From Frigoriflavimonas asaccharolytica (lineage in GTDB: Bacteria; Bacteroidota; Bacteroidia; Flavobacteriales; Weeksellaceae): DNA of 64,000 bases. Positions 9,678-13,153 of this stretch are shown one piece after another. Each line of letters starts with the position of its first letter. Position 1 is the first letter of the stretch. A program made the translations under genes and the position numbers. The notes beneath the pieces were generated by a model, which saw only the letters and a program-made list of their open reading frames with translations, was not told the DNA's origin and ran no database searches. The DNA lies in assembly GCF_013294015.1 (NCBI RefSeq), contig NZ_JABSNO010000007.1:62001-126000 (forward strand), written 5' to 3'.

Positions 9678-11255
9678 TTAAGGACAAGCCGTTCGTTTTC
9701 GTTTTCCATTCACTAAAGATATTTCAAAATTTCCAGAATCCAAAACTTCAAATAATTTCATTTTTGGCATTGGCATATATTTTTCAGTAAATTTTAAGAA
9801 CTGGTATTCTAGTTTTTCCATATAATCTTGTTGATAAGAATTTCCTGCAGCAATCATATAGTCCTTGTAATCATCGATAATATCATCAAATTCTTCTTGT
9901 GTATACGCGGGGTAAGCATCAATAGTTGTACTATCAAATGACATAAGGTATGTGCTAGTTTCAGTAACAACTGAAATTGTTAATTCTTTTACGTTTATTT
10001 TAATAGTATTATTAGGATCAGCATTATAGGCTATCACGCCTGCAATCCATTTGTTTAACTCAATCAAATCATCTGGCGAAAAGATTGGATACAACCCATT
10101 ATGATGTGAATGTAAAATAGCGAATGTTTGGGGCGTGTAATTAAAATTAAGCCTATTGGTACCCGGATAATTTTCAAGTATTTGATCTTGAGTACCAACC
10201 TGATTTGTACCTGGCATTGGATAACTTAATTTGTACCCAACCTCATTAGTTAAATTTACTTTAGTTTTTAGAATTGCTTTTTTAGCAATAAACTTTGCAT
10301 CATCCGTCGTTTTTTTAATTAATTCACAAGGGGTTTTGCCTTTTATTGGCCCCACATTCGGTTGCGTAGGCACACCAATAGCACAACCATTTCCATCTAC
10401 AAGACCAACTTCCCCAGGATTTGATGCTGCATTCACACAAGGATCTGGTGCTGGTCCTAGATCTCCACCGCCACCACCTGGACCGCCAGAATCTCCACCA
10501 CCACCAGCTCCATCAATAGGTACAATCGCTTCTGCAACTTCTTCACAACTATATGATGTATTTATATAATAACTAGGTTGATGTTCAGGAGGATTCTTAC
10601 AATTTGCCCAGTTTGCAAAAACATCAGCCGTTACATTAAAATTAGTTTCATTGTGTGCTCCTCCTTTACAAGGTTGATAAACGATAGTAGATTTCCAAAC
10701 GCACACCATCGTACTTTTTGCTAAGTGATTACCACTATTCATTGTACCAGCAGTAAGTTCCGTTATTAAAGTTTTACCTTTTGTATCTACAGGATGACCA
10801 AAGATTAATTTTTGTTTTTCTTGCACACTTAAATTATAAGAAACAAAAAATTCTTGATATGTTCCATTTGGCAAAGGTGCAAGTAAAAGATTTTCTACAG
10901 GGTCATTTGCTTGCGGATTTGTTCTTTTTATATTAAAAGTATAAGTGTGGTAATTAGGTCCATTTTCTATATAGATTACACCTTCTGTATCTATAGAAAT
11001 ACTATCCCCAAAATTTATTGTTTTACCAAACGGATTAATTGATTTATTAGTAAGCTGCTGCTTTGCAAATTTCAACTCTGGCAAAATTTTATTTCTATGC
11101 GCACTTTCTTTTAAAGAAATAATTTTAGAAGTTAGGCCGCTTTGTGCCGCTTGGTTTCTTGCATCTTGCTCCAGAAGAATATCTGGACGGCAGGAAAACA
11201 GGATTGCAAAGAGCAATAGCATCGCTGGGATTACATTTAAATACTTTCTATTCAT
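9678..11255 (-). CDS. large lipoprotein with JAMM/JAB-like C-terminal motif
   Basis: A 525-residue predicted surface lipoprotein (lipobox LFSC, Cys22). The ATG at 11255 was chosen because it places a proper signal peptide; an in-frame start at 11306 would add 17 unlikely residues. The N-terminal half is beta-rich without a recognised domain. A Gly-rich linker (about residues 250-270) leads to a C-terminal domain with Glu338 in NEVGY, HSH at 382-384 and Ser393-x2-Asp396 in FSPDD. This resembles the E...H-x-H...S-x2-D zinc site of JAMM/MPN+ metallopeptidases, with eight rather than seven residues between His384 and Ser393. Function is not established. Confidence 0.6.
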   Translation of the reverse strand: MNRKYLNVIPAMLLLFAILFSCRPDILLEQDARNQAAQSGLTSKIISLKESAHRNKILPELKFAKQQLTNKSINPFGKTINFGDSISIDTEGVIYIENGPNYHTYTFNIKRTNPQANDPVENLLLAPLPNGTYQEFFVSYNLSVQEKQKLIFGHPVDTKGKTLITELTAGTMNSGNHLAKSTMVCVWKSTIVYQPCKGGAHNETNFNVTADVFANWANCKNPPEHQPSYYINTSYSCEEVAEAIVPIDGAGGGGDSGGPGGGGGDLGPAPDPCVNAASNPGEVGLVDGNGCAIGVPTQPNVGPIKGKTPCELIKKTTDDAKFIAKKAILKTKVNLTNEVGYKLSYPMPGTNQVGTQDQILENYPGTNRLNFNYTPQTFAILHSHHNGLYPIFSPDDLIELNKWIAGVIAYNADPNNTIKINVKELTISVVTETSTYLMSFDSTTIDAYPAYTQEEFDDIIDDYKDYMIAAGNSYQQDYMEKLEYQFLKFTEKYMPMPKMKLFEVLDSGNFEISLVNGKRKRTACP

Positions 11256-11299
11256 AATTTGATTATTAGTTGCCCGAAACATAAAAACAAATTTTAACA

Positions 11300-11315
11300 T
11301 AGGCAAATACGCCTA
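11300..11315. promoter_or_regulatory. palindrome between lipoprotein and XRE genes
   Basis: Inverted repeat TAGGC-AAATAC-GCCTA in the 94-bp gap between the divergent lipoprotein (start 11255) and XRE regulator (start 11350). Position and symmetry suit the operator of the small HTH protein; binding is inferred. Confidence 0.5.
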
Positions 11316-11349
11316 CTATATTTTTTCTTTAAAATCCAAACTTTGCCTT

Positions 11350-11580
11350 GTGCAAAACCAAGACGAAATAATACTAATTAAAATTGGAAAGAAAATCCAA
11401 GAAATACGTCTTGCAAAAAATCTTACGCAAAAAGATATTGCTTTTGCTTTGGATGTAGAGATTTCCCAAATTACCAGAATAGAACGTGGGAAAATAAATA
11501 CTTCAATTCTCAATATTTTAAAAATAATTGATGCTCTTGATGTTTCTAAAGAAGAATTTTTTGCAGAATTAGAAATTTAA
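11350..11580 (+). CDS. XRE-family HTH regulator
   Basis: A 76-residue protein that is almost entirely one Cro/C1-type helix-turn-helix domain (about residues 10-66): IRLAKNLTQKDIAFAL, then ISQITRIERGK. It has no second domain, as in small dimeric repressors. The start is a GTG (MQNQDE), since no ATG lies upstream in a sensible place. It is divergent from the JAMM-like lipoprotein gene, with a 16-bp palindrome between them, so it probably controls that operon and itself. The 21-bp repeat array begins 15 bp after its stop. Confidence 0.85.
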   Translation: MQNQDEIILIKIGKKIQEIRLAKNLTQKDIAFALDVEISQITRIERGKINTSILNILKIIDALDVSKEEFFAELEI

Positions 11581-11595
11581 CTAATTATTACATCT

Positions 11596-11868
11596 TCAAA
11601 ACTCCTATTTCGGGCTTGTTTAATGATAGCTTGCGGTTGTATTACTAATATTTTGCCCTTCTGAAATGATATTTTGCGGTCTGGAAAACATCTCACGGCT
11701 TACAAAACACCTTCGTTGCGGTTGATATACCCCAAAATAGGCTTATTGAACCTGAAAATATCATCTCAAAACCTCAACACTTTATTCTGTAACCTCAAAA
11801 GTAGGGTTCTACAACCCCAACAGTTGTATCTGGAACGTGTAGCGAGGGGTTTAATAATGATTTGGTGT
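11596..11868. repeat. array of 13 degenerate 21-bp repeats
   Basis: Thirteen consecutive units of exactly 21 bp, without a single indel, fill the gap between the XRE gene and the hydroxyacid dehydrogenase gene. Units start at 11596, 11617, 11638, 11659, 11680, 11701, 11722, 11743, 11764, 11785, 11806, 11827 and 11848. A rough consensus is TTCTGnAACCTCAAAA followed by five bases usually ending GCGG, GAGG or GTAGG. No two units are identical. Read in the repeat frame they would give degenerate seven-residue units (for example FCNLKSR, YLERVAR), but a TGA interrupts at 11662. Role unknown; see findings. Confidence 0.75.
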
Positions 11869-11873
11869 GGTTT

Positions 11874-12803
11874 TTAACTGAAATTTACCAAAATCTTATC
11901 CACAATCACTTGTGCCAATTTTCTTTTGCTTTCAACCGTCCAACCTGCGATGTGCGGAGTGACGATTACTTTTTCAGATTCTAAAAGGTATTGCAGATCT
12001 GGGTTTTTAGTATTTAAATTCTCAAAAGAGGGTTTCTCATACTCTAAAACATCTAAAGCTGCACCCAAAATTTTGCCGGCTTTTAAAGCTTCTATCAAAC
12101 TTTTGGATTTTACTTGCTCTCCTCTTGCAGTATTAATTAGATAGAAATTTTTCTTCATTGCAGCTATGAATTTTCCATCTACATAGTATTTACTTTCTTG
12201 CGTTAATGGCAAATGCAAACTCACAATATCTGCTTTTTCTTGCAATTCTTGGCGAGAAACTTGCGTTGCAAATTCATCTTCTAAATTGGGCAAAATATCA
12301 TGAAAAATAACTTCAACCCCGAAACCAGAAAGTCTTTTTGCCACGGCTTTTCCCATGTTTCCATAGCCAATAATGCCGAAAGTTTTGCCTTTCAGTTCTG
12401 TACCACGATTTTCTTCGCGTTTCCAAATTCCGTTTTTTACTTCTATTGAAGAGATAAAAAGTCGGTTCATCAACACTAAAAGCATGCCCACAACTTGTTC
12501 TGCAACGGCATCTCTATTTCCTTCGGGAGAATTGATGAGTTTGATATTTAATTTTTGGGCGGTTTCTGCATCTATATTTTCCATTCCCGCACCAACTCGC
12601 GCTATGAATTTTAAATTTTTTGCATTCTCTAGAAAGTTTTTGTCTAATGGTATTCTGCTGCGAATAATAATGCCATCAAAATGACGAATTTTTTCTAAAA
12701 TTTCTTGGTAAGAAGAATAAAAATCTTCTTCTATTAAAAATCCTTTCGCCGAGAGTTGCTCAGCAATTAAACGGTGGTTTTTGTCTAGTTGAAGGATTTT
12801 CAT
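11874..12803 (-). CDS. D-2-hydroxyacid dehydrogenase (phosphoglycerate dehydrogenase-like)
   Basis: A 309-residue NAD-dependent dehydrogenase. It has a substrate-binding flank (RVGAGMENID), the Rossmann motif GYGNMG at 146-151, the catalytic-Arg segment NTARGE and the His segment TPHIAGWT near 287. There is no C-terminal ACT domain, unlike long SerA enzymes. The most likely reaction is 3-phosphoglycerate to 3-phosphohydroxypyruvate in serine synthesis, but glyoxylate or hydroxypyruvate reductase activity is possible, and no serC lies nearby. It ends 5 bp after the 21-bp repeat array. Confidence 0.8.
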   Translation of the reverse strand: MKILQLDKNHRLIAEQLSAKGFLIEEDFYSSYQEILEKIRHFDGIIIRSRIPLDKNFLENAKNLKFIARVGAGMENIDAETAQKLNIKLINSPEGNRDAVAEQVVGMLLVLMNRLFISSIEVKNGIWKREENRGTELKGKTFGIIGYGNMGKAVAKRLSGFGVEVIFHDILPNLEDEFATQVSRQELQEKADIVSLHLPLTQESKYYVDGKFIAAMKKNFYLINTARGEQVKSKSLIEALKAGKILGAALDVLEYEKPSFENLNTKNPDLQYLLESEKVIVTPHIAGWTVESKRKLAQVIVDKILVNFS

Positions 12804-13004: not shown

Positions 13005-13131
13005 GTCTGCCATAAAAAAATAAATTTTAGTTTTCGACGTAGTCAAATGTCTGCCATAATAATAATTAAACATTCGACGAAGTCAAAAAGCTGCCATAAA
13101 AAATAAATTTTAGTTTTCGACGTAGTCAATT
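13005..13131. repeat. three tandem repeats of about 42 bp
   Basis: Three units begin at 13005, 13049 and 13090. Each has CTGCCATAA at the left and TTCGACGTAGTCAA (middle copy TTCGACGAAGTCAA) at the right, with AT-rich filler between. GAC-GTA-GTC is itself a short palindrome. A degraded fourth start (ATCTTCCAAAATAAT) follows at 13132. They lie between the thioesterase stop and the hydroxyacid dehydrogenase start. Confidence 0.75.
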
Positions 13132-13153
13132 ATCTTCCAAAATAATATCAATA

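What the first reader, a model, noticed from the sequence alone, without database searches (positions are those of the whole stretch)
11596..11868. 13-unit array of degenerate repeats locked to exactly 21 bp
Seen directly: the whole gap between the XRE gene and the hydroxyacid dehydrogenase gene splits into 13 units of exactly 21 bp with no indel, although no two units are alike. A TTCTG/AACC left half and a G-rich right end recur. A strict period with low sequence identity suggests selection on spacing: 21 bp is two helical turns (same-face protein binding or DNA bending) and also seven codons. The repeat frame has only one stop in about 90 codons, so a decayed heptapeptide-repeat gene is an alternative. 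I do not recognise a described family.
Basis: seen in the sequence. Interest (0 to 1): 0.75.

Follow-up and report, generated by a model that had tools for sequence, protein, structure and literature searches.

The report
Palindrome array paired with orphan protein
The odd repeats in this gap are probably the leftover half of a two-part genetic element, an uncharacterised protein gene with a neighbouring row of short palindromes spaced two DNA turns apart, that turns up in at least four bacterial phyla and that I found no description of.

Summary
The array is real: its 293-bp window is the most 21-periodic of 4,248 in the 64 kb. It is not exactly 21 bp. Peaks fall at 21, 43, 64 and 85, and its units are palindromes of 21 or 22 bp around GGTTNNN(N)AACC. 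Arrays of this unit, found by DNA alone, sit beside one ~160-aa protein family in 24 of 61 loci. The family reaches no Pfam, NCBIfam or PADLOC cut-off. Starting from the protein, 70 of 70 first-fetched loci have a 21/22-bp array on the 3' side. The pairing recurs, with exceptions, in Acidobacteriota, Cyanobacteriota and Pseudomonadota. Unit sequence differs between protein lineages; period and mostly dyad symmetry persist. In 61 of 103 loci a predicted terminator separates gene and array. RNA-like covariation is weak and, outside the GGTT type, there is no 10.5-bp bending wave, so I read it as rows of dimer-binding DNA sites. The window copy has no partner gene: an XRE gene fills the slot and half the gene's terminator remains. 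Binding and function are inferred, not shown.

The parts
11595..11886 (.). 21/22-bp palindromic array (about 13 units), copy without a partner gene; the profile segment runs 13 bp into the dehydrogenase gene's 3' end
   Evidence: cyclic profile segment; autocorrelation; homologous to arrays at G000:C19 (77%) and G000:C32 (69%)
11606..11621 (+). right arm of a transcription terminator (TATTTCGGGCTTGTTT), probably a remnant of the lost partner gene
   Evidence: aligns with the terminator GCCCGAAA..TTTCGGGC that follows the partner gene at C19; the 77% match to C19 begins at 11606
11350..11580 (+). XRE/HTH_3 regulator, 76 aa, in the slot held by the ~160-aa partner gene at the paralogous C19 locus
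   Evidence: Pfam HTH_3 E=1.8e-13; gene order compared with L002
9678..11255 (-). divergent lipoprotein-like gene, homologous to the one beside the C19 copy (73% over 875 bp)

Best explanation
Shown: the sequence is a copy, without its gene, of a two-part element made of (1) a ~160-aa protein of unknown function, predicted all-alpha and mostly acidic, and (2) a 200-400 bp array of 21/22-bp units, mostly dyad-symmetric, next to it, often just past a predicted terminator of the gene. Shown: unit sequence tracks the protein lineage, while the period persists whatever the sequence. Inferred: each unit is a double-stranded DNA site for a symmetric dimer; two-turn spacing puts all dimers on one face, so they load side by side into a nucleoprotein filament. 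The binder is the linked protein or a partner it recruits, and each lineage has its own private site sequence, as in centromere or iteron systems. Arrays without a gene, as in the window, would be satellites served in trans or fossils. What the filament does (anchoring, partition-like, silencing, or selfish maintenance) is not known.
For: Association found in both directions. From arrays: 24 of 61 loci hold the same protein family next to the array. From protein: 70 of 70 first-fetched loci have a 3' array, 28 by GGTT profile of 60 bits or more and the other 42 by autocorrelation z 4.6-22.2 at lags of 21/22 and multiples. Pooled set (61 protein-first, 22 array-first) 81 of 83 downstream against 2 of 82 upstream and 6 of 225 behind other ORFs. 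Further loci, re-fetches removed: 24 of 38 downstream plus 4 upstream; 19 of 24 downstream plus 3 upstream. Dyad symmetry: reverse-complement z of 4.5 or more in 35 of 40 GGTT and 26 of 43 other arrays, 0 upstream; the highest of 830 shuffles reached 4.8. Array similarity follows protein identity (Mantel r 0.61, 0 of 500 permutations). DNA rather than RNA: predicted terminator before the array in 61 of 103, control 21 of 124; inner-stem mismatches GT 198 against AC 193; outer stem pairs do not covary. Arrays without a gene occur in genomes that carry the gene: 17 of 19 against 129 of 296.
Against: The protein is acidic (median pI 5.35 in 119 sequences), unusual for a DNA binder; its one fold model matches nothing of weight, and no binding was tested. 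Some copies have no array: 10 of 38 (one with no sequence to test), 2 of 24, 2 of 83 under z 5, and the Thiodictyon plasmid copy. The array lies upstream in the three Ralstonia copies and four others. Some pair covariation exists near the dyads (z 2.4-4.1 for three inner pairs and 6.1 for the central step of the second dyad; z 3.0-3.8 at 3, 8 and 9 bp). GT exceeds AC over all seven pairs of the first dyad (312 against 248), in the second dyad (151 against 106) and in single-mismatch dyads (119 against 81), more than the about 1.14-fold that the printed sense-strand composition predicts. Only 3 of 19 subfamily-2 loci show a terminator before the array. Same-genome paralogs with similar proteins can have different arrays.
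Confidence: 0.55

Rival explanations
1. Mobile or selfish element: the array is a non-autonomous repeat (as REP sequences are to RAYT) that spreads, and the ~160-aa protein helps it move or persist.
For: A 281-bp array segment is duplicated at 95% identity in G010 with unrelated flanks and without the gene. Arrays without a gene nearby occur mainly in genomes that have the gene. One to seven gene copies per genome.
Against: No transposase signature in the linked proteins scanned (the nearest mobility hit is MobP3 relaxase, E 0.012, 15 bits against a cut-off of 150). None in phage or viral collections; one plasmid record in two searches. Where the gene is present the array is nearly always at its 3' side.
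Confidence: 0.2
2. The array is transcribed and works as a string of RNA hairpins bound by the protein.
For: The unit consensus is a palindrome; covariation near the dyads and an excess of GT over AC outside the inner stem (312 against 248 over seven pairs, 151 against 106, 119 against 81). Only 3 of 19 subfamily-2 loci have a terminator before the array.
Against: Outer stem pairs do not covary; inner-stem GT equals AC (198, 193); terminator before the array in 61 of 103; array upstream of the gene in some lineages; fold energy of the window array is no better than shuffles (z 0.0 and -1.3); no Rfam family at a gathering score, one chance-level hit.
Confidence: 0.12
3. Bent or wrapped DNA: the array is a topological site such as a gyrase or nucleoid-protein wrapping site and does not need the linked protein.
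For: Two-turn phasing. The E. coli gyrase motif has a 10.75-bp GC oscillation (PMC6379681, passages read). GGTT arrays have a weak 10-11 bp component. Few arrays lie between divergent genes: 15 convergent, 35 tandem, 4 divergent, 6 undetermined of 60 loci.
Against: No 10-11 bp A+T/G+C component in 62 non-GGTT arrays. Tight linkage to one protein family is not expected.
Confidence: 0.07
4. Neutral minisatellite: a tandem repeat arose beside the gene in an ancestor and has drifted since.
For: Some arrays are strongly self-similar, so arrays do turn over by duplication (L023, L159).
Against: The period, and in most arrays the dyad symmetry, persist through change of unit sequence.
Confidence: 0.07
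5. Decayed heptapeptide-repeat gene.
For: Few stops in one frame (reader; not counted by me).
Against: 100 of 625 internal units are 22 bp and 6 are 20 bp; peaks at 43, 64 and 85.
Confidence: 0.01

Closest known systems
BrickBuilt MITEs of Porphyromonas gingivalis (PMC4596501; passages read)
   Same: Intergenic tandem minisatellite in a Bacteroidota genome, several copies per genome
   Different: 23-nt unit; leader, tail and terminal inverted repeats similar to those of insertion sequences; described in one species; no linked gene family reported in the passages seen. Here: 21/22 bp, palindromic unit, linked protein, four phyla
REP/BIME and RAYT (PMC2817692; abstract start and one passage seen; the rest recalled)
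   Same: Extragenic palindromes in arrays, associated with a protein gene and found without it too
   Different: RAYT is a tyrosine transposase; the linked protein here shows no such signature; units here are contiguous at 21/22 bp
Plasmid iterons and centromere arrays (parC-, tubC- and R6K-type; recalled, no paper read)
   Same: Cis array of sites about two helical turns apart (iterons) next to a gene
   Different: I recognised no Rep, ParM or TubZ-type gene among the recurrent neighbour clusters listed (judged by eye); two searches of the plasmid collection gave one record; unit sequence changes with protein lineage
E. coli gyrase binding motif (PMC6379681; passages read)
   Same: Helically phased, degenerate and long
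   Different: 10.75-bp GC wave around a central cleavage region; the period here is 21, with no 10.5-bp component in the non-GGTT arrays

Membership tests
BrickBuilt MITE | 23-nt tandem unit | tested here: not met
   Units 21 (519), 22 (100) or 20 (6) of 625
BrickBuilt MITE | terminal inverted repeats and target-site duplication | tested here: inconclusive
   Flanks of one duplicated pair (L012/L029) printed and read by eye, none seen; not tested systematically
REP/RAYT | linked Y1 tyrosine transposase | tested here: not met
   The linked proteins scanned match no transposase model
REP/RAYT | hairpin kept by base pairing | tested here: inconclusive
   Palindromes are strong, but covariation is absent in the outer stem and modest near the dyads
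Plasmid iteron system | direct repeats about two helical turns apart next to a gene | tested here: met
Plasmid iteron system | linked replication initiator | tested here: not met
   No Pfam or NCBIfam Rep match for the linked proteins scanned
Partition (centromere) system | linked NTPase (ParA, ParM or TubZ) | tested here: inconclusive
   None recognised by eye among the 14 recurrent neighbour clusters listed, within short loci
Gyrase wrapping motif | about 10.75-bp GC periodicity | tested here: not met
   Lag 10/11 near 0 in 62 non-GGTT arrays, about 0.09 in 47 GGTT arrays
Structured RNA family (Rfam) | match to a covariance model at its gathering score | tested here: not met
   Window 11300-12100: only MIR821, 17.7 bits against 249, E = 0.91
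Heptapeptide-repeat gene | unit length a multiple of three throughout | tested here: not met
   three 22-bp units in the window itself

The most novel reading that the evidence does not exclude
A new class of bacterial protein-DNA pair: a small all-helical protein and a private array of dimer sites whose sequence is free to change but whose geometry (dyad, two-turn spacing) is fixed. Each protein lineage, even each paralog within one genome, would have its own array 'address', and orphan arrays could be served in trans.
Probability: 0.4. Interest if true: 0.92.

Novelty: categorically new. Interest (0 to 1): 0.85.

Why it matters
A protein family that reaches no family-model cut-off in the libraries searched, sharing a locus with a strictly phased array in four phyla, is a rare case where function can be approached at once: the candidate partner DNA is in the same kilobase and changes with the protein lineage. 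If the protein (or a partner) binds it, the natural series of protein-array pairs is a ready-made specificity experiment. It also warns that 'degenerate' intergenic arrays, such as this one that Tandem Repeats Finder missed, may belong to a defined element.

Tried and rejected
Heptapeptide gene: rejected. Gyrase or bending: a leading idea until the 10-11 bp component proved absent in the non-GGTT arrays. XRE as the necessary partner: XRE-like ORFs lie in 16 of 145 gene loci (re-fetches included), of several types, so not general.

Dead ends: the first cyclic model collapsed to background. The three-unit alignment meant for a covariance model was useless because MAFFT shifted the units, so none was built. 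Fold searches: no PDB or viral match of weight; VIA looked at 34 chains and mainly covered residues 49-120, so absence of a known fold is not shown. PDB sequence search: two chance-level hits, E about 0.66. A plasmid relative in Thiodictyon has no array. Acidobacteriota: 1 of 149 genomes, that one being the genome I started from, with a Bacteroidota-heavy profile, probably an undercount.

Limits: my GGTT profile and the scan pattern select GGTT-type arrays; autocorrelation takes the best window, so z near 5 needs the controls quoted, and one of the 70 protein-first loci (L150) reaches only 4.6. The 70 are the 30 loci returned plus 40 that I picked by hand from its hit table, before looking for arrays there; several coincide with array-first loci. 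One search held 5 re-fetches, all with arrays, which I removed; its L164 and L185 are neighbouring genes that probably share one array. Phylogeny is not controlled in the Mantel test or the 17-of-19 comparison; of those 17 genomes G311 has only a weak gene hit (E 4.9e-8) and G144 one with a stop. 'Without a gene' means none within the fetched locus, about 1.5 kb on each side. The terminator scan is my own simple rule and compares stretches of unequal length.

Literature: ten searches of the held library showed no description in their listings; subscription papers and preprints are mostly not held. Also seen: PMC7537859 and PMC1242344 (abstracts), PMC12393610, PMC6344855 and PMC5771137 (passages).

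Full report
WHAT IS IN THE WINDOW. The gap between the XRE gene (11350-11580) and the dehydrogenase gene (11874-12803) is periodic. Autocorrelation of 11581-11873 against 1,000 dinucleotide shuffles gives lag 21 z 6.8, lag 43 z 6.1, lag 64 z 4.4 and lag 85 z 4.1; lags 22 and 42 have 4.3 and 4.0. In a scan of 4,248 windows of 293 bp it has the highest combined score, 10.4; the best starting outside 11200-12000 is 3.3. The spacing is therefore 21 with occasional 22, not exactly 21. A cyclic profile with insertions, trained on this and three related arrays, gives a palindromic unit GGTTTaaAACCccaAaaTTGg (score 231; five mononucleotide-shuffled sets at most 15.5). Tandem Repeats Finder does not report the array.

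HOMOLOGS IN THE SAME GENOME. The array has two homologs in its own genome, at C19 (77%, query 26-293) and C32 (69%, query 17-272). Beside both lies a gene for a ~160-aa protein; beside the window copy there is none. At C19 the order is lipoprotein-like gene (divergent), ~160-aa gene, array; in the window it is lipoprotein-like gene, XRE gene, array. The part shared with C19 begins at 11606, in the right arm of the terminator that follows the C19 gene. I infer that the window array lost its gene and kept half the terminator. A third gene copy, at C5, has a stop inside and a 21-bp array of another sequence (L201).

ARRAYS ELSEWHERE. A search with a related array hit 17 of 296 genomes of the family. 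An exact pattern of two units hit 12 of 296; the reversed control pattern showed none. The same pattern over the 84,980-species collection gave 43 stretches: one in Ralstonia, two in one cyanobacterium, two in Acidobacteriota, the other 38 in records whose titles I read as Bacteroidota. Training on these and the earlier loci gave 753 units in 64 arrays, after five duplicate loci were dropped; of 625 internal units 519 are 21 bp, 100 are 22 and 6 are 20, and 89 inserted bases fall in the palindrome loop.

THE PARTNER GENE. Clustering ORFs near arrays found by DNA alone gave one outstanding family: 24 of 61 loci, including both Acidobacteriota loci. The alignment has 21 rows; L37, R42, D82, L119 and Y122 are invariant. 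No member scanned reaches a Pfam, NCBIfam or PADLOC cut-off: the weak hits include DUF6730 E 0.04, MobP3 relaxase E 0.012 and, for one distant member, Gag_p15 E 0.0002 under its cut-off. PHROGs gave a partial hit of unknown function, phrog_2196, E 0.0014 over 34 residues. The AlphaFold model is all-alpha with a 55-residue helix, mean pLDDT 87 and pTM 0.68; no fold match of weight.

PROTEIN-FIRST TEST. The profile hits 129 of 296 family genomes in 16 of 33 genera, 22 of 247 across the phylum, 2 of 200 in the phylum of the Ralstonia genome, itself included, 1 of 149 in that of an Acidobacteriota genome, itself, and 7 of 146 in the phylum of the cyanobacterium, itself without a hit. Of 70 first-fetched loci, 31 have a GGTT-type array of 40 bits or more downstream and none upstream. 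The 42 below 60 bits have a downstream autocorrelation peak of z 4.6-22.2 at lag 21, 22, 42, 43, 63 or 65, with lags 15-69 allowed; upstream the same scan gives at most 3.9, except L142 with 8.2 at lag 28. Pooled and de-duplicated (61 protein-first, 22 array-first): 81 of 83 downstream with z at least 5, against 2 of 82 upstream and 6 of 225 behind unrelated ORFs.

OTHER LOCI, MISSES INCLUDED. One search listed 43; 5 are re-fetches. Of 38 distinct loci 24 have the array downstream, 4 upstream (L165 and the three Ralstonia copies) and 10 neither (one of them with no sequence to test). 24 loci: 19 downstream, 3 upstream, 2 neither; of its 21 cyanobacterial loci 17 downstream, 2 upstream, 2 neither. 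In both calls all lags from 12 to 69 were allowed. A Thiodictyon plasmid copy has no array. The four Acidobacteriota copies tested (L059, L066, L197, L200) all have it downstream.

SEQUENCE FREE, GEOMETRY FIXED. The arrays outside the GGTT type have different units (examples), yet 26 of 43 have a reverse-complement z of at least 4.5 (GGTT type 35 of 40; upstream 0; highest of 830 shuffles 4.8). Array similarity rises with protein identity: median 0.26 below 30% identity, 0.75 above 90%; Mantel r 0.61, 0 of 500 permutations. Nine same-genome pairs below 45% protein identity have unrelated arrays (0.20-0.34). The ten same-genome pairs above that are mixed, from 0.83 down to 0.17 (L202/L204, 86% identical proteins), so the tracking is not perfect. 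Phylogeny is not corrected for.

DNA, NOT RNA. A predicted intrinsic terminator lies between stop codon and array (up to 45 bp past its estimated start) in 61 of 103 loci, against 21 of 124 control stretches upstream and 11 of 103 inside arrays. Mirror pairs of the outer stem do not covary within arrays. In gene-sense orientation inner-stem mismatches are GT 198 and AC 193, without the wobble bias of RNA. Against this: three inner pairs (z 2.4-4.1) and the central step of the second dyad (z 6.1) do covary (also z 3.0-3.8); GT exceeds AC over all seven pairs of the first dyad (312, 248), in the second dyad (151, 106) and in single-mismatch dyads (119, 81), where the printed composition predicts about 1.14-fold; and only 3 of 19 subfamily-2 loci have the terminator. 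The A+T/G+C pattern has period 21 and no 10-11 bp component in 62 non-GGTT arrays (47 GGTT arrays about 0.09), which argues against plain bending or gyrase-like wrapping (motif described in PMC6379681, passages read).

ARRAYS WITHOUT A GENE. A 281-bp segment holding an array is duplicated without the gene in G010 (95%). Of 19 family genomes with a GGTT array that has no partner gene in the fetched locus, 17 carry the gene elsewhere (background 129 of 296, Fisher P 4e-5). The arrays may thus be used in trans, or persist after gene loss as in the window.

READING. The best-supported mechanism is a row of dimer-binding DNA sites on one face of the helix, bound by the linked protein or its partner. 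The acidic charge of the protein (median pI 5.35) and the lack of any binding data keep this at 0.55. The literature searches made found no description; the nearest published Bacteroidota repeat that I saw is the BrickBuilt MITE (PMC4596501, passages read), which differs in unit length, ends and partner gene.

Noticed in passing
window 9678-11255 (-); L002 2374-3267; L003 2384-2926: Lipoprotein-like genes with a similar N-terminus (SCRxDIxLxxE) lie divergently beside the array modules in the window, at C19 and at C32; a homolog of the C19 one lies in 9 loci of the clustering (some are re-fetches). Pfam finds nothing in the window protein.
   Followed up: partly
L002 1860-2285 (G000:C19): The C19 partner gene has an open frame of 153 codons, but the mechanical ORF list starts it only at an internal TTG, so its start codon may be unusual or lost.
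   Followed up: no
window 11350-11580; L014, L131, L134, L145, L147 and others: XRE-like regulators of several types lie near 16 of 145 loci that hold the partner gene, sometimes directly upstream on the same strand.
   Followed up: partly
window about 13007-13064 and 13091-13147: A 58-bp direct repeat, 91% identical, between the dehydrogenase gene and the next gene (self-match of L001).
   Followed up: no
L195, L198, L203 (G563); L207 (G597); L214, L222; L165: In these copies (Ralstonia, a relative in its phylum, two cyanobacterial, one Bacteroidota) the array is upstream of the gene instead of downstream.
   Followed up: partly
L173, upstream of the gene: A strong 14-bp tandem repeat (z 24.9) of another kind lies 5' of the partner gene.
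   Followed up: no
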